In this document: piece after piece, positions 10,034 to 21,165 of the stretch | Layout: each line of letters opens with the position of its first letter | Position numbering within the stretch: the first letter of the stretch is position 1 | Origin: Richelia intracellularis | GTDB taxonomy: Bacteria > Cyanobacteriota > Cyanobacteriia > Cyanobacteriales > Nostocaceae | Reading direction: 5' to 3' | Assembly (NCBI GenBank): GCA_000613065.1 | Contig: CBZS010000028.1 | Location: 1-35,637 of the forward strand | DNA: 35,637 bases | The notes under the pieces: generated by a model | Databases searched by the model: none | What the model was told of the DNA's origin: nothing | What the model saw: only the letters and a program-made list of their open reading frames with translations | Translations under genes and position numbers: made by a program

Positions 10034-10388
10034 TGCCTACCTGATTGTTGATTCAACTTCTGGATGAACAAAATATACAATAGGGTCGAACTATTTTAGA
10101 TATTGCGAAAAGTTGGCTTTCCCGGCACAAAACTTTTCAAGACGGATCTTAGATGATTAATAGAATTTGGTGTAAATAGGTAGATATAAATCTATAAAAA
10201 TATTTACATATGAAACCAAAACTGTTCAAATATCTATTGATTAAGTCAAAAATTCGGCGTTGCTGAATCAGGGGATGATTTCACTAAATTTTCAACGATT
10301 TCTCAATGGTTTCAAAGGCTAATTCATCCCGCACTTATGCAACGCCAAAAATTCTACAGGTATACCCATAATTACCACGGCATTGCAG
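10034..10388. other. Divergent intergenic region carrying a MITE
   Basis: This 355-bp gap separates the leftward SPOR-like gene from the rightward gene at 10389. Positions 10256-10346 are the MITE listed separately; the rest is AT-rich with no reading frame or RNA gene that I can support. Confidence 0.6.
10256..10346 (+). repeat. IS1-derived MITE, copy 1 (91 bp, 8-bp target duplication)
   Basis: A 91-bp element with ends GGCGTTGC...GCAACGCC; the inverted repeat extends imperfectly to about 25 bp, sharing GGGATGA at the same offset. It is flanked on both sides by AAAAATTC, an 8-bp direct duplication proving insertion as a unit. Three more copies lie at 11834, 17520 and 18669. Its right end resembles the end of the IS1-family remnant at 19508-19533, so it is probably mobilised by, and derived from, an IS1-type element. 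It ends 42 bp before the next start codon. Confidence 0.85.
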
Positions 10389-10775
10389 ATGAATGAAAAA
10401 CGTCTCCAAGCTTATCAAAATCTAATCCAAGCACTGCTCACCTGCCCGGAGGGAGAAGAATGGGATTTCTTACAAGCAAATACTGACTTGATTGATGGTG
10501 GATTTATTCAAACCATTAAACAGGTTATGGTGGAAAAACAAAAATTAAGGGAAAAAAAGAGGGCTGATTTTCTTCGGGATATTCTCTCAGAATTAGTATC
10601 TTTTCAGGCTTATATAGAACTGATTGAACAGTTACTCAACGGTGAAAATCAGGAAGCGATAGAATCCCTATTGAATAACCATCGGCATTTGTTAGATGGG
10701 GGATTAATACAAAGTATGCTGGCTGTAGCAAATGATATTTTGCCCAGGGGGAACCAGATAATGCTAATTTACTAA
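10389..10775 (+). CDS. Helical repeat protein, frameshifted near its C-terminus
   Basis: From the ATG at 10389 the frame gives 128 aa (MNEKRLQAYQNLIQALLTCPEGEEWDFL...). Two similar halves are visible: EEWDFLQANTDLIDGGFIQTIKQVM and EAIESLLNNHRHLLDGGLIQSMLAVAN. This resembles the N-terminal module found before TPR/CHAT regions in filamentous cyanobacterial proteins (recollection). After ANDILPRG the frame is lost at a five-G run (about 10747-10751). The alternative frame continues EPDNANLLMNLAGELMGIYENGSP and stops at 10825, so the ancestral product was longer and this copy is probably a frameshifted stub. A MITE lies just upstream. Confidence 0.55.
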   Translation: MNEKRLQAYQNLIQALLTCPEGEEWDFLQANTDLIDGGFIQTIKQVMVEKQKLREKKRADFLRDILSELVSFQAYIELIEQLLNGENQEAIESLLNNHRHLLDGGLIQSMLAVANDILPRGNQIMLIY

Positions 10776-10938
10776 TGAATTTGGCTGGGGAGTTAATGGG
10801 AATTTATGAAAATGGTTCACCATAAATTTGACAATATTACGATACCTAAATTTTATATGCGATCGCATGTTGCTGTAAATACATTTAATTCTTCCCCTTT
10901 AAGCTTTTCCCTTGAGTTAGTCAAATTCAAAAGCCTTA

Positions 10939-11814
10939 TTATCCCTTGACTCCACTACCTGTCTCTGTGGGTACAATATAACGCTGTAAAGCGAGAAATA
11001 CTATCAACACAGGAACAATGGAAATCAGCGAACCTGCAGCTACTAATCGCCAATCTAAAGAAAAAGTACCTACCAACTTAGATACACCAAGAGGCAGGGT
11101 ATATAATTTTTCATCTTGAATTACGAGCAAAGGCCAAAGAAAATCACACCAAGAGCCAATAAAGACAAAGATTGCCAGGGTAACTAATGCTGGACGAATT
11201 GCTGGCAGCATTATATGCCACCACAAGCCCAATTCCGAACAACCATCCATCCTTGCCGCCTCTTCCATTTCTTTGGGTACTCCCATAAATGCTTGTCGTA
11301 ACAGGAAAATACCAAAGGCATTGGCTAAGTTAGGAAAGATAATTCCCCAATAGGTATTAGTTAATCCCAACCGTACCGTGAGAATATATAAGGGAATCAT
11401 CACGATTTGAAAGGGAATCATAATTGTGGAAACGATCGCAACAAAAATCCAATCCCGTCCAAGAAATGATAGCCTTGCTAAAGGATAAGCTGCTAAAGCG
11501 GATAAGATTAAATTCACCCCCACAACACATATTGCTACGAAAGTACTGTTAAATAAATATTGGGCAAAAGGTAGAGTTTGGCACACAGTTATAAAGTTAT
11601 GTATGGTAGGTTGAGCAGGTAATAACTGAGGCGGAGATTGAAAGATATTTTCTGTTGATGATTTTAAGGAAGTTCCTAGGAGCCATAATAAGGGAAAGAG
11701 CATTCCCATAGAAATAGCTGTAAGTAAGCCATACATCCCCAAAATTTGCAGGAGATATTTACTTGTTGTACGAGTCATGAATAAAGCAAGGGTGAAGGAA
11801 GAAGTGAAAGACAA
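10939..11814 (-). CDS. Carbohydrate ABC transporter permease (MalG/UgpE type)
   Basis: A 291-aa inner-membrane permease with six predicted helices. It carries the MalG-type cytoplasmic EAA loop MEEAARMDGCSELGLWWHIMLPAIRPAL, which docks onto the ATPase, and an end typical of the family (VLIVFLALQRYIVPTETGSGVKG). A shorter start at the Met of MTRTTSKYLLQ (about 11778) is possible. No partner MalF-type permease, binding protein or ATPase is in the window, so it is an orphan that must pair with subunits encoded elsewhere or be unused. A MITE ends up 20 bp upstream of its start, between it and the kinase gene. Substrate cannot be read from the sequence. Confidence 0.85.
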   Translation of the reverse strand: MSFTSSFTLALFMTRTTSKYLLQILGMYGLLTAISMGMLFPLLWLLGTSLKSSTENIFQSPPQLLPAQPTIHNFITVCQTLPFAQYLFNSTFVAICVVGVNLILSALAAYPLARLSFLGRDWIFVAIVSTIMIPFQIVMIPLYILTVRLGLTNTYWGIIFPNLANAFGIFLLRQAFMGVPKEMEEAARMDGCSELGLWWHIMLPAIRPALVTLAIFVFIGSWCDFLWPLLVIQDEKLYTLPLGVSKLVGTFSLDWRLVAAGSLISIVPVLIVFLALQRYIVPTETGSGVKG

Positions 11815-11833
11815 TAAATCATCTAATTCATCC

Positions 11834-11924
11834 GGCGTTGCATAAGAACGGGATGAATTAGCGTTCTAAACCATTGACAAATCGTTGATAATTTAGTTAA
11901 ATCATCCCCTGATTCAGCAACGCC
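11834..11924 (-). repeat. IS1-derived MITE, copy 2
   Basis: 91 bp, opposite orientation to copy 1, with ends GGCGTTGCATAAG...CAGCAACGCC. No matching direct repeat is visible at the flanks. It lies between the hybrid kinase stop and the sugar permease start (both leftward), so it may separate the two transcripts or displace the permease promoter. Confidence 0.85.
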
Positions 11925-11961
11925 TTGCCAAATTATAGGCAATTAAGAAGCAAGAACTAGT

Positions 11962-14355
11962 TCAAATACGTCCTGCCAAACAACCAACAACGGTAACTAA
12001 TTCATATGGTTCCACAGGCTTAAACAAATACATTTGATACCCTTCATGAATAGCTCGCATTCTTTGCTCTGCTTTGCTATTAGAAGTTAAAGCTGCAGCC
12101 GGAGTTTTTCTAGATTTTTCTGTATTTTCCAAAAAGCGTATCTGACGGATGAGGGAATAAGCATCCTCTTGTGGCATCTCTATGTTGCATAGTAACACAT
12201 CTGGCTTGCATTCTTGAATAATATTCATTGCTTCTATCACTGAAGATACAGGCTGTGTTAGCGCCTGGTAAGATTGTAATACTGCCAGTAAAAAATCCTG
12301 TGATTCTACTTCACTATCAAATATTAAAACCTGCACATCTGCTAAGAAGTCTGGTGATAAGTTAATAATTCCTGTTGATGGGTAGAAAACTGAACAGCGA
12401 TCGCTACTGGAAGTGATGGTTTCATTTAGTTTCTGTTCTAAAGGCTTATATTCTATATTTAATAACGGCAACTTAACCGTAAATACCGTGCCCTTACCAA
12501 TACCAGGACTTGCCACATTGATGGTACCACCATGTAATTCTACTAAATGACGGGCGATCGCTAACCCTAAACCCATACCACCATGGAATCTGGTGTTGGA
12601 ACTATCAGTTTGATAAAAACGATCAAAAATGTAGGGAATTAATTCTGAATCAATGCCAATTCCAGTGTCTTTAACTTGAATTTGAGCATAAAATTTCCAA
12701 GGATCGTTAACAGGCAAATTTACATCTTCAACTTGGGAAAGAGAAATGTCTACCCTACCACCATGGGGTGTAAACTTAATCGCATTAGAAAGCAGATTCC
12801 AAATAATTTGTTGTAAGCGTTCTGGATCACCAGAAACTAAAAATTTGGAATTTAGAGGTGTAAATAAGTTGGGGTTAGCCGTAGATTCATCGGATGTACA
12901 CTGGTGTTTATGTTGACCATCAAGGCAATAACTAAAATAAATCCCCTTGGCTTCAGTGGCTAATTTGACATTTTCCAACACTGCCTGCAAGATGGGTATC
13001 AAATCGCAATTACGTATATTCAGGCTTAGTTTGCCTTTAATCATCCCGGAAATATCCAATAAGTCCTCTACTATTTGAGTTTGGAGTTTGGCATTGCGTT
13101 CAATTGCATCTAACCCCTTGTCAACTTGAGTTGTATGTAAGTTCCGGGAACGTAATAATTGCGACCACCCCAAAATAGATTGCAAGGGGGATCGCAATTC
13201 ATGGGACAATACACTTAAGAATTCGTCTCGAATCCGATTTGTATCTCGTAGCTGTTCGGATTGTTGCTGTATAAAATTTTTCAATACATATCTTTCCATG
13301 GCAATGCTAATATTACTGCTCACCGCTTCCATCATTGCCTGTTCTTTATAACTAAATTGCGATCGCCTACGACTTGCAAAGGCAATTTTTCCGAATATTT
13401 TTCCCTGTACTCTCAATACCTGGCTGTAATAAGCTTGCACCCCTGCAGAACGTAGCAATACTGTTCTGGGCTCTGTAGAGTGTTGAACATTCTTCAAAAC
13501 AATTTTAGGAAATTCCTGGGTGACAATCTCAATATATTCCATAGACTTAGCCAAGTCAGGAGAAATACCACTATGGGAATCTAGATGCATGACTGGAGAG
13601 TTATTTTCTACCATGTAGTTCCAGTACATATCTAAATCTAGTTCTGGAGCTAATTTAGCAAACCAAGTTTGAATGAACAGCTTGGGATGGGAATAGGCAG
13701 TGGTATCATTGTTTAGTTCCCGCAAGATTTTAATGCGCCGTTGGTCTTGTTGCCTAGATGTTTTTGACCTATGGCGTTCACTCAGATCCAAAACATAAGC
13801 AATTATATTCGTCTGGTTTGTAGGTAAAAATTTATAACTGCATAACACATGCAGGTGACTACCATCTTTACATAGAAGTTTTTGCCTGTGAGGTTTTGTT
13901 GTAAATTCTCCATTTGACAAGGTAAAGTTGGGTGATAGGAGTTCTAACCAAGAAATTTGGCCTGATGTTAGCTCCTCTCTCCCATAGCCACTCATTTGCA
14001 AAAGAATATCATTAGCTTGTTTAATTTCCCCATCAATATTAATACAAAGAAATCCCACAATATCTATATTAAATAGAGAATTGAGCTCGCTTTGAGTCTT
14101 TTGCAGTATTTCTTTGGTGTAGTTAATTTGCTGCTGTAAATTCTTAATAATTAAGCATAATTTTCCAATCAAAACTGCCATAAATGCCGTTGTTCCTAGT
14201 CCAAACAAAACAATTGCAAATTCCAGATCATAGTATTTTAATCTTAGACCATGAATAATTAACCAACCCACAAATTCAAGTATTATTAACCACAGCAGTA
14301 ACCATAGCCATAATCGGGGATTCCCAGGTATTTTTTTGATTAGCATATCCATCAC
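11962..14355 (-). CDS. Membrane hybrid histidine kinase (PAS-GAF-HisKA-HATPase-pseudoreceiver)
   Basis: A 797-aa sensor kinase. Domains: two transmembrane helices (about 14-36 and 47-70), a coiled coil, a PAS domain (about 90-195), a GAF-like domain (about 215-360) without an evident chromophore Cys, HisKA with phospho-acceptor His385 (SHELRSP), and HATPase_c with N-box NLLSNAIKF (Asn520/524), G1 DTGIGID, F-box FDRF and G2 GLGLAIA. A C-terminal receiver fold (about 672-797) follows. In the receiver the phospho-acceptor Asp is replaced by Asn724 (LLCNIEMP) and the acidic pair is reduced to FDSE, while Thr757 and Lys779 remain. The kinase core looks intact, so phosphate probably goes to a separate regulator. 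The first codon is GTG (14355); ATGs at 14352 and 14346 are alternatives, the last best spaced from AGGGGG. It follows two small membrane ORFs by 9 bp, suggesting an operon. Confidence 0.9.
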   Translation of the reverse strand: MMDMLIKKIPGNPRLWLWLLLWLIILEFVGWLIIHGLRLKYYDLEFAIVLFGLGTTAFMAVLIGKLCLIIKNLQQQINYTKEILQKTQSELNSLFNIDIVGFLCINIDGEIKQANDILLQMSGYGREELTSGQISWLELLSPNFTLSNGEFTTKPHRQKLLCKDGSHLHVLCSYKFLPTNQTNIIAYVLDLSERHRSKTSRQQDQRRIKILRELNNDTTAYSHPKLFIQTWFAKLAPELDLDMYWNYMVENNSPVMHLDSHSGISPDLAKSMEYIEIVTQEFPKIVLKNVQHSTEPRTVLLRSAGVQAYYSQVLRVQGKIFGKIAFASRRRSQFSYKEQAMMEAVSSNISIAMERYVLKNFIQQQSEQLRDTNRIRDEFLSVLSHELRSPLQSILGWSQLLRSRNLHTTQVDKGLDAIERNAKLQTQIVEDLLDISGMIKGKLSLNIRNCDLIPILQAVLENVKLATEAKGIYFSYCLDGQHKHQCTSDESTANPNLFTPLNSKFLVSGDPERLQQIIWNLLSNAIKFTPHGGRVDISLSQVEDVNLPVNDPWKFYAQIQVKDTGIGIDSELIPYIFDRFYQTDSSNTRFHGGMGLGLAIARHLVELHGGTINVASPGIGKGTVFTVKLPLLNIEYKPLEQKLNETITSSSDRCSVFYPSTGIINLSPDFLADVQVLIFDSEVESQDFLLAVLQSYQALTQPVSSVIEAMNIIQECKPDVLLCNIEMPQEDAYSLIRQIRFLENTEKSRKTPAAALTSNSKAEQRMRAIHEGYQMYLFKPVEPYELVTVVGCLAGRI

Positions 14356-14364
14356 CCCCTATTA

Positions 14365-14712
14365 CTAATCATGTATCAGGCTTCCCATACAAAGTACAGG
14401 GAAGCCTGATACTTGATACAAACCCATGAGTTGGAAATCAAGGATACTATTACCTATTTCTACTCTTGTTCCATTATCAACAACAATGACTAACAGATAA
14501 ATTGCTGCGAGCGTTAAATTAATAAGTTGACTAAAAACATCATAGATGAAGCCTTTTCCCCTGCTCATTACTACCATCGCTATACTAATGATAATAAAAT
14601 TTAGTACTGCGAACAAACTTATTTCTCTTAGATAGGGTATACACCCAGTTGATGATAAATCAATAAAACTTAGTTCATTAATCTTTAGATTAAAAATTTC
14701 TATATCCTGCAT
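14365..14712 (-). CDS. Small membrane protein upstream of the hybrid kinase
   Basis: A 115-aa open frame with hydrophobic helices around ISLFAVLNFIIISIAMVVM and LINLTLAAIYLLVIVV, and a possible third near the C-terminus. I do not recognise a family. It is followed 9 bp later by the kinase gene and preceded at 12 bp by another small membrane ORF, all leftward, so it is probably co-transcribed and might modulate the kinase (inference from position only). Start ATG at 14710-14712. Confidence 0.5.
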   Translation of the reverse strand: MQDIEIFNLKINELSFIDLSSTGCIPYLREISLFAVLNFIIISIAMVVMSRGKGFIYDVFSQLINLTLAAIYLLVIVVDNGTRVEIGNSILDFQLMGLYQVSGFPVLCMGSLIHD

Positions 14713-14724
14713 CAGAGTCAGAGA

Positions 14725-14994
14725 TCAAATTAAAAGAACTAACCCTACAGCTACTCTAGCTAAAATATCAGCACAGTAATGTATAGAAAGAATAAATCTA
14801 GCAGAGTAGAATACTTTTTTTGTGTTAAGTAACGCTATGCTTAACGGATAGCTATTACTAATACAATTAGATATAGCAGACAAAATAATAAATAACAATA
14901 TACATATGTATAACAGTAATTTGGGTATTTTTAGAGATACAATTTGTTCATAAATTAACGCTTTAGTCAATTTTAATAAGTTCAGACTCAACAT
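14725..14994 (-). pseudogene. Membrane ORF with PAP2-like C-terminal motif, probable remnant
   Basis: An 89-aa hydrophobic frame ending in SARFILSIHYCADILARVAVGLVLL. The R-x5-H-x3-D spacing matches the third motif of PAP2-superfamily membrane phosphatases, but the expected upstream PSGH motif is absent, so this is probably the tail of a truncated phosphatase; a genuine short protein is possible. An ISAzo13-type element is inserted three bases before the ATG. Removing the IS and one TTA copy places an in-frame TAA directly before the ATG, so the IS itself did not remove coding sequence. Confidence 0.4.
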
Positions 14995-14997
14995 TTA

Positions 14998-16342
14998 GGT
15001 GATTTATAAGAAAGAATTTACCAATGAAAGTAAGATGTAATGTTGATCAGTAAAAAAATAGGGGCAAGTATTTTGGAGTATCCTAGACCCAGCAGAGGAG
15101 CCCAAATCATTAAAAAGATCACAAATCGAAGACTTGCCGTTGGCAGCATCGAAAATGAATGGAGTGGAACGTCGGGGTTTTCAACCTGAGATGACGTTAA
15201 AATATTGCCAAGGTAGAGCAAGGTTAGCACAAACAGTATTCGGTTCGGGTAGAGAAAATATAGAGTTAGGGTTAGCGCAAAAAAGAACAGGGATAATCTG
15301 TGTGGGATTACAATCAGCCTTTAGCACAGCAAAGCGTTGAGAGGAGAAACAACCTCTTCTCTTGTGGCATTATCCCTGGGACAAATTGCAGAATCTGATT
15401 CTCAACAAGACCCAACATTTAAAAGTTCCTTAGCCTATACCCGTTTAACAGCAACATCCCCACTCGAAAAACTCAAAGAACAGGGATTTAGCCAGGAGCA
15501 ATTGCCTTGCGCCAGTACAATGGCACAAGTATTGAATCGAATGGGCTATGGTCTTCCTAAAGTAGTAAAAGCCAAACCTCAAAAAAAAATTCCACAAACG
15601 GATGATATCTTCAACAACATCAAAGAATTTGAGCCGCAATCAACAAACAAGCCTCAAAGTCAAACCACTAAGCATGGATTGAAAAGCTACGGTTAATATC
15701 GGGAGTTATTCTCGTGGTGGAATAACCAGAGGAGATGATCAAGCTGATGATCATGATATGGGATGCACAGAAAAATATACTCCCTGTGGGAGTTTTGCTC
15801 AAGATACTGGGGAATTATTGTATATTAACTTTGGTAGTTGTTCTTATAAAACCAGGGATTTTATTGTTGATAGTCTAATTCAATGGTGGAAGACAATGAC
15901 ACCAGAACAAAAGCTGGATACCGAACTGATACAAATTAAAGTTGATAATGGTCCGGAAACTAGTGGAGTAAGAACTCAATAAAAAAAAAGGATGGTTGAG
16001 TTTGTTAATCTGCTAAATATACCAATTCAATTGCTTTACTATACTCCTTAGCATAGTAAATACAATCCCATAGAGGCTTGTTGGGGTATTCTTGACCAGC
16101 ATTGGAATGGGGGGGCGAAGCTTGTTGATGTTGAAGTCATGCTTTCCTGGGCTTCGAGTATGATTTGGAAAGGCTTGTATCCTATCTTGAGTTTAAGTAA
16201 AACTGTTTACCAAAAAGGGATTTCTCTAACAAAGAAAGCTATGAAACAAGTCGAGTTTAGATTACAGCGAAATCCACTGTTGCTCAAATGGGATATCTTG
16301 ATTCAACGGGTTTAGCTGGTAACTTCTTTTTCAAAAATAACC
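14998..16342 (+). mobile_element. ISAzo13-type element, copy 1 (about 1345 bp)
   Basis: Ends resemble GGTTATTTCTAAGAAA (left) and, inverted, GGTTATTTTTGAAAAA (right), and TTA is present at both flanks as a 3-bp target duplication. The interior encodes one transposase in several frames. Two other copies are at 19811-21165 (inverted) and 34290 to the window end. The family is known from a single long DDE transposase, as here. Confidence 0.85.
15130..16315 (+). pseudogene. ISAzo13-family transposase, frameshifted
   Basis: Pieces in order: N-terminal AASKMNGVERRGFQPEMTLKYC (from 15134); TSSLVALSLGQIAESDSQQDPTFKSSLAYTRLTATSPLEKLKEQGFSQEQLPCASTMAQVLNRMGYGLPKV (15337 on); after an A-run frameshift, CKATVNIGSYSRGG; GCTEKYTPCGSFAQDTGELLYINFGSCSYKTRDFIVDSLIQWW ... 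IKVDNGPETSGVRTQ (15758-15982); then a stop and VEFVNLLNIPIQLLYYTP ... YNPIEACWGILDQHWNG to the end. The DDE-like D and E positions are present, but at least four disruptions make it inactive. Confidence 0.85.
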
Positions 16343-16509
16343 TTAGATGCTAGATTGCTAATTATATATTTTCTGACCATATAGTTAAAATTATTTTATA
16401 GCATATTTCTACAGTTAACTTTTAGAGGATGTTTTAAAAGGTGGGAGGCATCAGAAAAAAGCTCACAAGGCATATGCTAAGAATTATAGAAAACAGCACC
16501 CCGTGAGCA

Positions 16510-17324
16510 AATGACTAAGAATTATCCTAGCAATTTAACCTGGAAACAGTGGGAGTTAATCGCAGAGATCTTCCCAGAGGCAAAACCAGCTGGTCGTCCA
16601 CGTACAACAACATGTATGTACCCAGTAGTCAACGCGATTTTATAGCTACTGTGTCAAGGGTCTACATGGCGGGCATTACTAGGATATTTACCAGCTTGGT
16701 CTACATGGCGGGCATTACTAGGATATTTACCAGCTTGGTCTACAGTCTATGGCTATTTCAGAAGATAGGGGACAGACCTTACTTGGCTTCAGGTTTATGA
16801 AAAACTATATGAATGGGTTCGAGTAGCAGCCAGTCGAGAACCAAGTCCATGGGAAGCATCCTTTGATAGGCAATCAGTTGAAACCGCAACCATGATTTGT
16901 ATGGATGTTGGTTTCGACGCAGGAAAACAAGTACATGGACGGAAGCGGTTTATTACGGTTGACTTGTTAGGGCTAGTTTTGCGAGTCTTGGTTACTTCTG
17001 CAAGTGTGCCAGAACCTGCAGGTTTATCAGATGAAAGATAAAGTTAAAAGACTGCACACTACTATCTGGATGAATGGAGGATATCGGGAGGAAGATTTTG
17101 CCCACTGGATAATCGATTTTTTTCGTTGGATTGTGGAAGTGGTTCTCAGACCCTTAGAAAAGAAGGGTTTTACCCTTTTACCAAAACCTTGGGTTGTAGA
17201 ACCAACTTTCGGGTGGCTCAATTTGTGTAGAAGATTAAGTAAGGACTATGAAAGGCTACCTGAAACTTCTGATACTTTAATTTATATTGCAATGATACGT
17301 ATCATGGTCAGGGAACTTGCATGA
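16510..17324 (+). pseudogene. IS5-family transposase (second type), broken
   Basis: Begins MTKNYPSNLTWKQWELIAEIFPEAKPAGRPRTT. An in-frame 39-bp tandem duplication repeats STWRALLGYLPAW; a TAG follows in the RR(W) region; then TWLQVYEKLYEWVRVAASREPSPWEASFD, SVETATMICMDVGFDAGKQVHGRKRFITVDLLGLVLRVLVTSASVPE. After a rearranged junction (about 17010) the C-terminal part DKVKRLHTTIWMNGGYREEDF ... VVEPTFGWLNLCRRLSKDYERLPETSDTLIYIAMIRIMV runs to 17324. The D and E catalytic positions are recognisable; the gene is not functional. Confidence 0.85.
16661..16738 (+). repeat. 39-bp perfect tandem duplication inside the IS5 transposase
   Basis: The unit starting TCTACATGGCGGGCATTACT (39 bp, 13 codons) is repeated twice without a mismatch. 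The sister IS at 29125 has it once, so the duplication is specific to this copy and recent relative to the IS divergence. Confidence 0.95.
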
Positions 17325-17360
17325 TTTGTAACTCACTTCTACTTTTAAAACATCCTCTTA

Positions 17361-17519
17361 CTGTGTATCTTGCAATCACTAGCTTTAAGTTGTATGAATT
17401 GAATTACTCGCACAATATATGTAGTGAAACATACTTGTATCCCAAGAGAAATTGCATCTACCTTGATATTGATTTTCCTGATATTTTTAAAACAAGTCAT
17501 CTATACAACAAAAAATATT
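17361..17519. other. AT-rich spacer, no supported feature
   Basis: Between the IS5 copy and the MITE I see no reading frame with family similarity, no RNA gene and no terminator. With 16343-16424 it is the native sequence upstream of the small membrane ORFs, now split by the IS5 insertion. Confidence 0.4.
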
Positions 17520-17610
17520 GGCGTTGCATAAGTGCGGGATGAATTAGGCTTTGAAAGCATTGATAAATAGTTTAAAATTTAGTGAAATCATCTCCTGATT
17601 AAGCAACGCC
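17520..17610 (-). repeat. IS1-derived MITE, copy 3
   Basis: 91 bp, ends GGCGTTGCATAAG...AAGCAACGCC. The flanks are AAAATATT on the left and AAAATATG on the right, an 8-bp target duplication with one mismatch. Confidence 0.85.
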
Positions 17611-17863
17611 AAAATATGATATTCATTACAGAATATTTAGTTGAATAAAGATTATGCCAAATAACATGATTCTCATCACTTCATTGAAATGTTTGCATGT
17701 TTGTGTTTTTATTGGTTCTAAACTTACAAAATTTTTTTCAAATTCACAGTAATATAAATTTATTCATCATCTGTGTTTAATTTCTTTCTATATTTCTATA
17801 ATAAAGCCCAGTATTTGAATATACCAGACTTGATTATGGATAGATACAAGTATGGTATTAGCC
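17611..17863. other. AT-rich intergenic region downstream of the thioesterase
   Basis: About 250 bp of AT-rich sequence after the leftward thioesterase stop. It contains no convincing reading frame, hairpin terminator or IS end. Confidence 0.4.
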
Positions 17864-18310
17864 TTAAATAAATTCTCTTGATTTTCTTCTTTCTTTATTT
17901 TCTGTCTCTCTGATATTTGCATCTAACCACTGTCTAATTTGATTCGGCAAACGATGTTTTTGCCTAGTACCAGTTTCAATGCAAACGTGCCTAGTCACAG
18001 CCTTACTTGCAATCATATCTGCTGTGATAATTTCATAATTAATTTCAAATTTATCAGTGTCTAATTGTTGTGGTGTTAGAACTACTAATAGTTTGTCACC
18101 ACAAAATATAGGACGCATAAAATCGATACTAGAATGAACAATGGGAAATGCTAAAGATGAATGACCGAAAAATGCCTGTAAATTAATACCTGATACCTCT
18201 AAAGATTCTTCATATGCTTCATGGCATATTGATAAAACATTGGCAAAAAAAACAACTCCAGCAGCATCCGTATTTTCAAATCTTACAGTGCGGTTATAAG
18301 TGAAAGACAT
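17864..18310 (-). CDS. Hotdog-fold thioesterase, probable 1,4-dihydroxy-2-naphthoyl-CoA hydrolase
   Basis: A 148-aa 4HBT-family acyl-CoA thioesterase. The signature is RFENTDAAGVVFFANVLSICHEAYEESL with catalytic Asp15, followed by FPIVHSSIDFMRPIFCGDKL and the strand pattern of a single hotdog domain. It resembles the cyanobacterial enzyme (Synechocystis slr0204 type) that hydrolyses 1,4-dihydroxy-2-naphthoyl-CoA in phylloquinone (vitamin K1) synthesis, needed for photosystem I. Another YbgC-like substrate cannot be excluded. It is the only intact gene between the two ISAzo13 copies, which fits an essential gene in a decaying region. The C-terminal tail (TENKERRKSREFI) is charged. Confidence 0.82.
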   Translation of the reverse strand: MSFTYNRTVRFENTDAAGVVFFANVLSICHEAYEESLEVSGINLQAFFGHSSLAFPIVHSSIDFMRPIFCGDKLLVVLTPQQLDTDKFEINYEIITADMIASKAVTRHVCIETGTRQKHRLPNQIRQWLDANIRETENKERRKSREFI

Positions 18311-18389
18311 TGGTATAAATTTCCAATTTTATGTAAAGCAAAAGAGAAAATCTATGCTCTCCTTTACCCTTAAAATAATTTTACCGTAG

Positions 18390-18668
18390 CTATAAATATA
18401 GGGCACCTCGAAAAATTGAGCAGGTAGCTCGCGAGATGAGAGTATAGGGAGAGCAGAAGCTGGGGTTGAATGGCCATGGTATAACAAAAAGTCGGGGAAC
18501 TTTAACAGCTATACCAGAAGTTAGAAAGCAAGAAGAGGCTGTTGATGAAGTTAGACGAGACGGAGCCGTGGTCATAATTTCGTCCGATTTTAGAACAAGT
18601 GCATAACAAGGCCAGAAAAAATAATGCTGGGCGAAAGCCCATAGATGCAATAGTCATGTTCAAAATGG
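18390..18668 (+). pseudogene. Transposase N-terminal fragment, family uncertain
   Basis: Rightward, the end of this stretch reads RPILEQVHNKARKNNAGRKPIDAIVMFKM, a phrase typical of the N-terminus of some IS5-superfamily transposases, and is then cut by the MITE at 18669. The preceding 200 bp contain several short open pieces but no frame I can extend with confidence. The rest of the transposase is absent, replaced by a different IS beyond the MITE. Confidence 0.45.
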
Positions 18669-18759
18669 GGCGTTGCATAAGTGCGGGATGAATAAGGGTT
18701 TGAAACCATTGATAAATCGTTGAAAATTTAGTGAAATCATCTCTTGATTCAGCAACCCC
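18669..18759 (-). repeat. IS1-derived MITE, copy 4
   Basis: 91 bp with a clean left end (GGCGTTGCATAAGTGCGGGA) and a right end mutated from GCAACGCC to GCAACCCC. It sits exactly at the junction between a transposase fragment and an ISKra4-type head, and the flanks do not match each other, so the junction probably arose by recombination or deletion next to the MITE. Confidence 0.82.
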
Positions 18760-19039
18760 CCATTCTCAAGTAAATTACTCTCTATCTGGGAGTGTTTTAA
18801 CCCACAAATGCTGCCTGAGTCTAACCAACAAACTATCTGTTCAAATAGTTCTTGTGCTTGTGACCAAAACATACCTTGATTTGATGTAGATCCTTGCATA
18901 GGGTGTGGAACTGTTCCTGTTTTTTCACTTTTTACAAGCCAATTCCATCAAGTACATTTTTGGCTGTCAATACTACTCTAGTTAACTTGTTATTTATTAT
19001 CCTTATATCATAATCCGTAGTACCAAAAGAGTCGCACCC
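18760..19039 (-). mobile_element. ISKra4-type IS, left-end fragment
   Basis: Read leftward from 19039 it has the terminal repeat GGGTGCGACTCTTTTGG, the leader, then MQGSTSNQGMFWSQAQELFEQIVCWLDSGSICGLKHSQIESNLLENG (start at 18899). The frame stops being transposase at the MITE. Its outer end abuts the IS1-type remnant at 19045. Confidence 0.75.
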
Positions 19040-19044
19040 TAATG

Positions 19045-19533
19045 AATTAGGTAAAACAAGTTGGTGAAAAATTGCCAGATGCACCATCAATAGAGGATAT
19101 CCCAGAAGTTGTAGAACTGGAAGAATTAGAAACTTTCGTGGGTAAAAAAAAACAAAATTTGGTTGTGGACAGCACTAGATCATTTCCGCCAAATAATTTT
19201 AGCTTGGGTACTGGGAGACTATAGTGCAGAAACCTTTCAACCTTTGTGATATATTGTCTACCTCTGGAAGTGCTATTTTTCTGTCACAGATAGATGGAAA
19301 GTTGACGTCAGTTTTGTTGAGCCAGAAGACCATATTCTTAGCAAAAAAATATGACCAGAGTAGAAGGGTAAAACACAGGTTTACGTCATTATCTCCCAGG
19401 TCTACATCGAAAAATATTATGCTACTCTAAATCCTTAGATATGCTGCAGCACTCTATTCGATTGTTACTTCATTACTTTAAGTATAGAGAAATACCTGTA
19501 TTTGGTTGATTCATCCGGCAAATATGCAACCCC
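19045..19533 (+). mobile_element. IS1-family element, 3' remnant with transposase fragments
   Basis: Several frames reconstruct the IS1-type transposase C-terminal part: QVGEKLPDAPSIEDIPEVVELEELETFVGKKKN; IWLWTALDHFRQIILAWVLGDYSAETFQPL; CYFSVTDRWKV; FVEPEDHI; YMTRVEG; and finally MLQHSIRLLLHYFKYREIPVFG. Just after the stop comes the element end, at about 19508-19533, similar to the right end of the 91-bp MITEs. The 5' part is lost where the ISKra4-type head abuts. Multiple indels make it inactive. Confidence 0.8.
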
Positions 19534-19810
19534 CTTTACTCTTTAGATTTATGATCTACGCACTTTGCCTAGCACCCAACTTATTCCCCAAAATTTTCCA
19601 GTGAAAGTAAAAAAACCAATTGATAACAACTGGGGGGTTAATTAGGGTGCATTTAACTAAAATATGTATTCGTCAAGCAAATAAACATATCCGGAAATTC
19701 TTTCATGTTGATGGGGAAGAAATAAACCTCATCTATATCGAGACTTGAAGTTTACCAGTAAATCATATTTACTGTCCAATAATAAAGTAATTCCACTCAA
19801 AGAGGACTAA
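19534..19810. other. Spacer, no supported gene
   Basis: About 280 bp between the IS1 remnant and the ISAzo13 copy. Short open pieces exist but none has recognisable family similarity; no hairpin terminator or RNA gene is seen. Confidence 0.4.
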
Positions 19811-21165
19811 AGTTATTTTTGAAAAATAAATTACCAGCTAAAGCGGTTGAATCAAGATATCCCATTTGGGCAACAGTGGATTTTGGTGTAATCTAGACTC
19901 CACTAGTTTCATAGCTTTCTTTGTTAGAGAAATCCCTTTTTGGTAAACAGTTTTACTTAAACTCAAGATAGGATATAAGCCTTTCCAAGTCATATTCGAA
20001 GCCCAGGAAACCATGACTTCAACATCAACAAGCTTCCTTCGCCCGCCCCATTCCAATGCTGGTAAAGAAGACCCCAACAACCCTGTATGGGATTGTATTT
20101 ACTATGGTAAGGAGCATAGTAAAGCAATTGAATTGGTATATTTAGGAGATCAACAAACTCAACCAACCTTTTTTTTAATTGAGTTCTTACTCCACTACTT
20201 TCCGGACCATTATCAACTTTTATTTGTATCAGTTCGGTATCCTGCTTTTGTTCTGGTGTCATTGTCTTCCACCATTGAATTAGAGTATCAACAATAAAAT
20301 CCCTGGTTTTATAAGAAGAACTACCAAAGTTAATATAGGATAATTGCCCACTATCTTCATCAAGAATCCCACAGGGAGTATATTTTTCTGTGGATCCCAT
20401 ATCATGATCCTCAGCTTGATTGTCTCCTCTGCTTTTTCCACCACGAGAATAACCCCCGATATTAACTGTAGCTTTGCAATCCATGCTTAGTGGTTTGACT
20501 TTGAGGCTTGTTTGTTGATTGGGGCTCAAATTCTTTGATGTTGTTGAAGATATGATCCGTTTGTGGAATTTTTTTTGAGGTTTGGCTTTTACTACTTTAC
20601 GAAGACCATAGCCCATTCAATTCAATTGCCTTGTGCCATTGTACTGGCGCAAGGCAATTGCTCCTGGCTAAATCCCTGTTCTTTGAGTGTTTCTAGTGCG
20701 GATGTTGCTGTTAACCGGGTATAGGCTAAGGAAGTTTTAAATGTTGGGTCTTGTTGAGAATCAGATTCTGCTATTTGTCCCAGGGATAATGCCAGAACAG
20801 AAGAGGTTGTTTCTCCTGGCAACACTTTGTTGTGCTAAAGGCTGATTGTAATCCCACACAGATTATCCCTGTTCTTTTTTCCGGTAACCCTAACTCTATA
20901 TTTTCTCTACCCCAACCGAATACTGTTTGTGCTAACCTTGCTGTACCTTGGCAATATTCCAACGTCATCTCAGCTTGACAGCCCCGACGTTCTACTCGAT
21001 TCATTTTCGATGCTGGCAACCGCAAGTCTTCTATTTGTTTGTGATCTTTTTAATGATTTGGGTTACTCTGCTGGGTCTAGCATACTCAAAAATACTTGCC
21101 CCTGTTTTTTTACTCATCAACATTACATCTTAGTTTCATTGGTAAATTATTTCTTAGAAATAACC
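19811..21165 (-). mobile_element. ISAzo13-type element, copy 2 (about 1355 bp, leftward)
   Basis: Both ends are readable: GTTATTTTTGAAAAAT on the left and, inverted, GGTTATTTCTAAGAAA on the right. It lies in opposite orientation to copy 1 at 14998. The flanks are TAA and TTA, so a 3-bp duplication is at best imperfect. Confidence 0.85.
19840..21030 (-). pseudogene. ISAzo13-family transposase, best-preserved copy
   Basis: Leftward pieces: RLPASKMNRVERRGCQAEMTLEYCQGTARLAQTVFG (from 21025); LPGETTSSVLALSLGQIAESDSQQDPTFKTSLAYTRLTA (20825-20622, interrupted near MAQ); then one 208-codon frame (20616-19990) from MGYGLRKVVKAKPQKK through CKATVNIGGYSRGGKSRGDNQAEDHDMG, IKVDNGPESSGVRTQLKKRLVEFV and YNPIQGCWGLLYQHWNG. 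A final frame (20080-19838) carries MVSWASNMTWKGLYPILSLSKTVYQKGISLTKKAM. It is interrupted at three or more points. Confidence 0.85.

What the first reader, a model, noticed from the sequence alone, without database searches (positions are those of the whole stretch)
10256..18759. A 91-bp MITE family apparently derived from the IS1-type element at 19045-19533
Four copies (10256-10346, 11834-11924, 17520-17610, 18669-18759) have identical length and shared GGCGTTGC/GCAACGCC ends. Copy 1 has a perfect 8-bp duplication (AAAAATTC) and copy 3 a 7-of-8 duplication. The end of the IS1-family remnant (about 19508-19533) resembles the MITE right end, and IS1-family insertions give 8-9 bp duplications. 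A non-coding element cross-mobilised by an IS1 transposase is the simplest model.
Basis: partly seen in the sequence, partly recalled or inferred. Interest (0 to 1): 0.55.

Follow-up and report, generated by a model that had tools for sequence, protein, structure and literature searches.

The report
IS1-type mini-transposon with self-copying ends
A 91-letter piece of non-coding DNA has spread to hundreds of places in this cyanobacterium's genome using the ends of a known kind of jumping gene, and in about a third of the copies examined one end appears to have been overwritten with a copy of the other, which would make it a natural record of a mutation process mostly studied with artificial reporters.

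Summary
The four 91-bp copies are real. They belong to a family with 280 exact-ended copies genome-wide, about 455 full copies by extrapolation. In 1.41 Mb sampled, 198 of 203 full copies are exactly 91 bp; of 182 with both flanks, 78 have a perfect 8-bp target duplication and 113 match at 7 or 8 of 8, against 0.5% and 1% for shuffled flanks. IS1-family elements in the same genome share the ends GGCGTTGC-N8-GGGATGA and make 8-bp duplications. Mobilisation by an IS1-type transposase is well supported. Descent from the IS1 remnant beside it is not: only about 25 bp are shared.

Two further results. First, the 8-bp block in each end has two forms. The usual element is A–B (131 of 198), but 38 are A–A and 25 B–B, and private variants are mirrored in both arms far above chance (14 versus 0.95; 0 of 5000 shuffles). 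This fits hairpin template switching (quasipalindrome correction). It was not seen in IS1 (0 of 20) or in two sets of relatives (0 of 30, 0 of 33). Second, one insA codon is TAG at all 49 IS1 places read, so no intact helper is evident.

The parts
10256..10346 (-). 91-bp element, copy 1, type A-B, with perfect 8-bp duplication AAAAATTC (10248-10255 and 10347-10354)
   Evidence: 1 difference from the typed family consensus
11834..11924 (+). 91-bp element, copy 2, type A-B (A block ATAAGAAC), no duplication; its left flank TTCATCC resembles another element's end (by eye)
   Evidence: 92.3% to consensus
17520..17610 (+). 91-bp element, copy 3, type A-B (B block TTAATCAG), 7 of 8 duplication
   Evidence: 91.2% to consensus
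18669..18759 (+). 91-bp element, copy 4, type A-B, right end GCAACCCC, no duplication
   Evidence: 93.4% to consensus
19036..19533 (+). IS1-family remnant: positions 256-755 of the 755-bp element, first 255 bp missing; DDE_Tnp_IS1 match at 19145-19351 with a stop inside
   Evidence: 93.6%; PF03400, E 9.5e-5
19511..19533 (-). right terminal repeat of the IS1 remnant, block ATATTTGC

Best explanation
The 91-bp element is a non-coding mini-transposon (MITE) whose 23-bp terminal repeats, GGCGTTGC-N8-GGGATGA, are those of cyanobacterial IS1-family elements. An IS1-type transposase acting in trans moves it, duplicating 8 bp of mostly intergenic, AT-rich target. It went through a recent burst in this genome. 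The two arms lie only 91 bp end to end and differ in an 8-bp block (A = ATAAGTGC, B = TGAATCAG) between matching stems of 8 and 7 bp, so the single strand can fold into an imperfect hairpin. During replication the polymerase sometimes switches template within the hairpin and copies one arm onto the other, turning A-B elements into perfect-stem A-A or B-B elements. Shown: ends, length, duplications, copy number, end types, mirrored private variants and controls. Inferred: that an IS1 transposase does the moving, that the burst is recent, and that template switching rather than another arm-to-arm copying process does the overwriting. The confidence given is for IS1-type mobilisation together with arm copying within an element in at least part of the A-A and B-B copies.
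For: Copy number: 280 exact-ended 91-bp copies, reversed-pattern control 0; 287 when any length of 76-106 bp is allowed. In 1.41 Mb sampled, 198 of 203 full copies are exactly 91 bp. Duplications: 78 of 182 perfect at 8 bp, 113 of 182 at 7 or 8 of 8; in the first 139 copies 65 are perfect at 8 bp, 1 at 7 and 2 at 9, against 0.5% for shuffled flanks at 8 bp. IS1 in the same genome: 53 PF03400 matches; about 755-bp elements with the same 8+7 bp end motif and, in several, 8-bp duplications. In five relatives, IS1 copies of 754-756 bp with 8-9 bp duplications (L111, L118, L124, L126, L131) have one end exactly GGCGTTGCATAAATGCGGGATGA, which is exactly the A end of 15 of 30 relatives' 91-bp elements. 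Arm copying: A-B 131, A-A 38, B-B 25, B-A 2, other 2 of 198. Mirrored private variants: 14 in A-A/B-B against a shuffled mean of 0.95 (0 of 5000 reach it); in A-B 2 against 1.79 expected. The 15 shared stem positions disagree between arms 1.16 times per A-B element but 0.56 per A-A/B-B element (p 0.0015), while body divergence does not differ significantly (p 0.22). Long-spaced control: 0 of 20 IS1 end pairs homotypic (Fisher p 0.0012). Folding: A-B -13.8, A-A -27, B-B -27.7 kcal/mol (one example each).
Against: No transposition was observed, and the element's body is not IS1 sequence. TAG stands in insA at 49 of 49 places read (46 of 46, plus L035, L036 and L059), so no intact helper is visible; the assembly is a draft in 857 contigs, 95.8% complete. 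A and B blocks differ from the blocks usual in this genome's IS1 (ATAATAGA, ATATTTGC). A-A elements are slightly clustered among similar bodies (35 of 1000 shuffles reach the observed value; B-B 569 of 1000), so some A-A copies may descend from other A-A copies by transposition. 43 arm differences in the 63 homotypic elements are not mirrored. The controls from relatives are imperfect: only 11 of 30 and 16 of 33 have both inner stems exactly GGGATGA, so many pair less well than the copies here.
Confidence: 0.85

Rival explanations
1. A-A and B-B elements are mobile subfamilies that transposed as such; no arm copying is going on. (Partial versions of this can hold beside the best explanation.)
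For: A-A elements are slightly more alike than chance (35 of 1000); A-A and B-B carry perfect target duplications about as often as A-B (12 of 33, 10 of 23, 55 of 122).
Against: Private variants are mirrored in both arms in 11 of 63 homotypic elements against 2 of 131 A-B elements (p 1e-4). A-A occurs in 27 distinct bodies and B-B in 21, and 10 bodies are shared between A-B and A-A or B-B.
Confidence: 0.12
2. Arms are exchanged by recombination between different copies, not within one element.
For: There are hundreds of copies; one 91-bp copy has the IS1 left block ATAATAGA (L142) and two of 22 IS1-sized end pairs have an A-type block, so ends can pass between elements.
Against: A donor arm from another copy would not be expected to carry the recipient's private variant, yet such variants are mirrored. 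If the two arms changed independently, 5.45 B-A elements would be expected; 2 are seen.
Confidence: 0.15
3. A-A and B-B are artefacts of genome amplification or of assembling short repeats.
For: The assembly is a draft in 857 contigs; amplification chimeras are known to involve inverted repeats (recalled). How this genome was sequenced is unknown to me.
Against: The block lies within 16 bp of unique flank; target duplications are kept; seven homotypic elements have single-arm changes inside the block, which would have to postdate the copying.
Confidence: 0.08
4. The element is not a transposon but a functional intergenic hairpin (terminator or regulatory RNA) kept by selection.
For: 91-bp elements with related bodies occur across genera, and insertion points avoid open frames (27 of 187 inside, open-frame coverage 0.498).
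Against: Target duplications, presence in 48 of 192 genomes only and none in the one same-genus genome searched (G043), and no strongly preferred neighbour orientation (42, 41, 38, 28).
Confidence: 0.03

Closest known systems
Type I MITEs (mobilised by the transposase of an insertion sequence with the same ends)
   Same: Short, non-coding, many dispersed copies, terminal repeats and duplication length shared with a resident insertion sequence; the definition as quoted in PMC3542288 (passages read).
   Different: Only about 25 bp are shared with the resident IS1, so it is not a simple internal deletion of it; in about a third of copies both arms carry the same block.
IS1 family
   Same: Ends starting GG, about 755 bp, 8-9 bp duplications, PF03400 transposase.
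   Different: The 91-bp element is too short to code for a transposase; its A and B blocks differ from those usual in this genome's IS1.
MITEs of Anabaena sp. 90 (147 copies, 77-541 bp, called type II)
   Same: Filamentous cyanobacteria and similar sizes (PMC3542288, passages read).
   Different: There no matching insertion sequence was found by the authors; here one is present. I could not compare sequences (supplements were not available to me).
ERIC elements
   Same: High-copy intergenic elements; up to 711 copies reported in Photorhabdus (PMC10969869, passages read).
   Different: Sequence, length and insertion signature differ (recalled; no ERIC sequence was compared).
Quasipalindrome correction by template switching
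   Same: Imperfect inverted repeats become perfect; arm homogenisation and spacer inversion (PMC8604942 and PMC7202029, passages read; PMC8794818, abstract, opening and outline read).
   Different: In the passages I read it is described for mutational hot spots, reporters, yeast genes and RNA genes; here it is inferred across many copies of one mobile element.

Membership tests
Type I MITE of the IS1 family | Terminal inverted repeats shared with a resident insertion sequence | tested here: met
   GGCGTTGC-N8-GGGATGA at both ends of the 91-bp element and of IS1
Type I MITE of the IS1 family | Same target-duplication length as the insertion sequence | tested here: met
   8 bp in both; 78 of 182 perfect in the MITE, several IS1 copies 8 of 8
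Type I MITE of the IS1 family | Too short to code for a transposase | tested here: met
   91 bp in 198 of 203 full copies; the others 90, 92 and 102 bp
Type I MITE of the IS1 family | Body derived from the parent insertion sequence | tested here: not met
   IS1 consensus matches the window's elements over 25 bp only; this defines deletion-derivative MITEs, not all MITEs
Type I MITE of the IS1 family | Moved by the IS1 transposase | not testable with these tools
   Needs a transposition assay
IS1 family (for the 755-bp element) | DDE_Tnp_IS1 transposase | tested here: met
   53 PF03400 matches, best E 4.9e-25
IS1 family (for the 755-bp element) | Two frames joined by a frameshift at an A-run | tested here: inconclusive
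   Frame changes at an A-run in the own consensus and in L118, L124 and L126; one continuous frame in L111; the 20 own full copies also have TAG upstream
Quasipalindrome correction by template switching | Arms of an imperfect inverted repeat become identical, carrying private variants across | tested here: met
   63 of 198 homotypic; 14 mirrored variants against 0.95 expected
Quasipalindrome correction by template switching | Depends on close spacing of the arms | tested here: inconclusive
   For: 63 of 194 at 91 bp against 0 of 20 at mostly about 755 bp. Against: 0 of 30 relatives' 91-bp elements and 0 of 33 elements of 97-121 bp in G053, so close spacing alone is not enough
Quasipalindrome correction by template switching | Spacer inversion as a second product | tested here: inconclusive
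   2 of 198 are B-A relative to the body, one with a perfect duplication
Quasipalindrome correction by template switching | Bias between leading and lagging strand | not testable with these tools
   Draft assembly; replication direction unknown

The most novel reading that the evidence does not exclude
In this lineage one hairpin arm is copied onto the other at an unusually high rate: 63 of 198 copies here, none of 30 relatives' 91-bp elements and none of 33 in the multi-copy relative G053. The burst of hundreds of near-identical imperfect palindromes would then act as a genome-wide natural reporter of quasipalindrome template switching, perhaps revealing a repair or replication defect. In addition, IS1 spread while carrying a fixed stop codon in insA, so both IS1 and the 91-bp element were moved in trans by a transposase source not seen in the assembly.
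Probability: 0.3. Interest if true: 0.7.

Novelty: new member of a known kind. Interest (0 to 1): 0.5.

Why it matters
The element itself is a new, very abundant member of a known kind. The value lies in its arms. Hundreds of near-identical imperfect palindromes, each anchored in its own flanks, let one count how often and in which direction one arm overwrites the other, and compare this with the same kind of ends held about 755 bp apart in IS1. The shared stop codon in IS1 also bears on an old question: whether IS1-type transposases, thought to act mainly on their own copy (recalled), can drive a burst of non-coding passengers in trans.

Tried and rejected

Rejected or weakened ideas: (1) The 91-bp length as a special constraint. 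It looked fixed across genera, but that search asked only for 91 bp; other lengths with the same tips are common (60-90 bp in 65 of 192 genomes; 92-122 bp in 152 of 192). (2) Loss of the hairpin nuclease SbcCD as the cause of arm copying: an uninterrupted SbcD match is present here and SbcD is found in 60 of 60 genomes searched; SbcC was not tested. (3) Amber suppression as the explanation for the stop codon in IS1: none of 35 tRNA genes found has a CTA anticodon, but a tRNA could be missing from the draft. (4) A longer autonomous element with A and B ends: none seen in 1.41 Mb; the other three quarters of the genome were not scanned for this.

One search showed that G170 is unsuitable (4 of its 6 listed copies have blocks that differ at only 2 of 8 positions, none identical) and G157 weak (0 of 36 with blocks differing at 2 or fewer, but none with both inner stems GGGATGA). 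They are dropped; 0 of 30 and 0 of 33 remain, themselves with only 11 of 30 and 16 of 33 having both inner stems exact. I lowered the probability of the novel case from 0.35 to 0.3 for this.

Dropped before counts: 5 full copies not 91 bp long and 17 partial copies are left out of the end-type counts; 16 of 198 copies without 8 bp of flank on both sides are left out of the duplication counts; one 100-base stretch that overlapped another (L232) was left out. All fetched contigs were chosen because an earlier search showed a copy or an IS1 there, many of them an exact-ended copy, so the figure of 455 may be too low.
Full report
WHAT IS THERE. The window is contig C28 of a 5,488,377-base draft genome in 857 contigs, by its relatives a nitrogen-fixing filamentous cyanobacterium (similar elements on plasmids of Nostoc, Calothrix and others; the organism itself is unnamed). 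The four reported copies are at the stated places and are each 91 bp. Copy 1 lies in the opposite orientation to the others; copy 4 ends in GCAACCCC rather than GCAACGCC. Copy 1 has a perfect 8-bp duplication, copy 3 one of 7 of 8, and copies 2 and 4 none.

HOW MANY. The pattern GGCGTTGC-N75-GCAACGCC occurs 280 times genome-wide and its reversed control 0 times. Allowing any length from 76 to 106 bp raises this to 287. I examined 100 stretches, 1,408,510 bases: 99 fetched from contigs in which an earlier search had shown a copy or an IS1, plus the window. They hold 203 full and 17 partial copies; 198 of the 203 are exactly 91 bp and 125 have exact tips, which scales to about 455 full copies in the genome. 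Bodies differ from the consensus by 4.3%.

IT TRANSPOSES LIKE IS1. In the first 139 copies with flanks, 65 have a perfect 8-bp duplication and 89 match at 7 or 8 of 8; shuffled flanks give 0.5% and 1%. Perfect 7-bp and 9-bp duplications number 1 and 2. In the larger sample 78 of 182 are perfect and 113 of 182 match at 7 or 8 of 8. Insertion points avoid open frames of 150 codons or more (27 of 187 inside, coverage 0.498) and lie in AT-rich DNA (flank G+C 0.301, sample 0.392).

THE IS1 CONNECTION. The genome has 53 matches to the IS1 transposase model PF03400. Twenty full copies give a 755-bp consensus with 3.0% divergence. Their left ends usually carry the block ATAATAGA and their right ends ATATTTGC, between GGCGTTGC and GGGATGA, with 8-bp duplications in several. 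The 91-bp element has the same 8 and 7 bp but the blocks ATAAGTGC (A) and TGAATCAG (B). In five relatives, IS1 copies of 754-756 bp with 8-9 bp duplications have one end exactly GGCGTTGCATAAATGCGGGATGA, which is exactly the A end of 15 of 30 relatives' 91-bp elements. Beyond about 25 bp the body of the 91-bp element is not IS1 sequence. So the ends are IS1-type, but the neighbouring remnant is not the parent.

RELATIVES. Exact-ended 91-bp matches occur in 48 of 192 genomes of the family, own included; outside this genome there are 1 to 6 per genome. Most of those listed have recognisably related bodies; several (for example in G065, G097, G109, G155 and G184) have other bodies. Of 30 fetched, 15 have a perfect 8-bp duplication. 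Other lengths with the same tips occur in 65 of 192 (60-90 bp) and 152 of 192 genomes (92-122 bp), with very varied bodies. IS1 transposase matches occur in 100 of 192. The one same-genus genome, G043 (88% complete), has none of these. Twelve plasmid records carry similar elements at 74-88% identity.

ARMS THAT OVERWRITE EACH OTHER. Relative to the body, 131 of 198 copies are A-B, 38 A-A, 25 B-B, 2 B-A and 2 have another right block, one of them the IS1 left block. If each arm changed independently, 5.45 B-A copies would be expected. In the 63 A-A and B-B copies, 14 arm variants that are not consensus appear in both arms of the same element, in 11 elements; pairing arms at random among elements of the same type gives 0.95 on average and never 14 in 5000 trials. 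In A-B copies, over the stem positions both arms share, 2 are mirrored where 1.79 are expected. Differences between arms at the 15 shared stem positions fall from 1.16 per A-B copy to 0.56 per A-A or B-B copy (p 0.0015), while body divergence is not significantly different (p 0.22). The simplest reading is that one arm was copied onto the other within the same element. Seven homotypic copies have a single-arm change inside the block, so these are unlikely to be fresh sequencing errors. Results against: 43 arm differences in homotypic copies are not mirrored, and A-A copies are slightly clustered by body (35 of 1000 shuffles).

CONTROLS. The same kind of ends, mostly about 755 bp apart in IS1, show no homotypic pair in 20 (Fisher p 0.0012); two further IS1-sized pairs have one A-type block and are not homotypic. 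Thirty 91-bp elements from 30 relatives are all heterotypic, their blocks differing at 4 to 7 of 8 positions (p 3.7e-5). In G053, with 33 copies of 97-121 bp, none is homotypic (blocks differ at 4 to 6 of 8; p 1.1e-5). Taking only exact-tip copies here, 45 of 125 are homotypic (p 5e-6 against G053). Limits: both inner stems are exactly GGGATGA in only 11 of the 30 and 16 of the 33, so some of these pair less well. Two other multi-copy relatives proved poor controls: G157 (0 of 36 with blocks differing at 2 or fewer positions, but different inner stems) and G170 (4 of 6 copies with blocks differing at only 2 positions, none identical; 6 of 33 copies seen). The process therefore looks like a feature of this genome and not of such ends in general, but the contrast is not clean.

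MECHANISM. Folded as single-stranded DNA an A-B copy gives -13.8 kcal/mol with an open 8 x 8 loop between two stems, and one A-A and one B-B copy -27 and -27.7 with a continuous 23-bp stem. Quasipalindrome correction by template switching predicts arms that become identical and carry variants over; spacer inversion is another product (PMC8604942, passages read; PMC7202029, passages read; PMC8794818, abstract, opening and outline). The two B-A copies would fit spacer inversion. I did not find a cause: SbcD is present and uninterrupted here.

THE HELPER PROBLEM. All 20 full IS1 copies have TAG where four relatives' copies have a tyrosine codon (LKA*VNG against LKAYVNG twice, LRSYVNG and LKLYVNG). 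A 15-base pattern open at that base finds 46 places genome-wide, all TAG; L035, L036 and L059, which that pattern misses, also have TAG. So 49 of 49 places read carry it; copies that differ elsewhere in the pattern would be missed, and some places lie near contig ends and could be assembled twice. No tRNA with a CTA anticodon is among 35 found. Either IS1 itself was moved in trans, or the stop is bypassed, or the source has been lost or lies outside the draft.

NOVELTY. In eight searches of the library I saw, in the listings and in the passages I opened, no description of this family or of arm copying in a bacterial MITE; the MITE review PMC10969869 has no occurrence of 'template switch' in its main text. 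Most subscription papers are not in that library. The element is a new member of a known kind; the arm copying is a known process inferred in an unusually rich setting.

Noticed in passing
own genome, IS1 copies such as L031, L038, L045, L049, L058: At 49 of 49 IS1 places read insA has the same TAG where four relatives have tyrosine, although copies differ from their consensus by about 3% and several have their own 8-bp duplications.
   Followed up: partly
family-wide, e.g. G053, G157, G170: A very large set of short elements with the same GGCGTTGC tips but unrelated bodies, some carrying a GTAGAGACGTTCC palindrome, others runs like GCGCAAAGGCGCAAAG, in 152 of 192 genomes at 92-122 bp.
   Followed up: partly
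L142:10873-10963, L180:13216-13971, L142:1712-2466, L058: Ends seem to have passed between IS1 and the 91-bp element: one 91-bp copy has the IS1 left block, and some IS1 copies have the A block (exact, or ATAAGTAC in L142).
   Followed up: no
L033:1388-1478: A B-B copy of the 91-bp element sits at the right end region of an IS1 copy, whose last 38 bp are missing from the alignment.
   Followed up: no
L154:8364 and L151:8322: Two copies of 102 bp carry an 11-bp insertion in the body that by eye looks like a repeat of adjacent sequence.
   Followed up: no
window 15070-16320 and 19784-20616: Broken remnants of what look like further insertion sequences; the stretch near 16240-16320 seems to recur in reverse near 19820-19960. 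Judged by eye only.
   Followed up: no
G000 and G043: A genus with one 5.49-Mb and one 3.2-Mb genome would fit a genome-reducing symbiont such as Richelia (recalled guess from sizes; no call names the organism).
   Followed up: no
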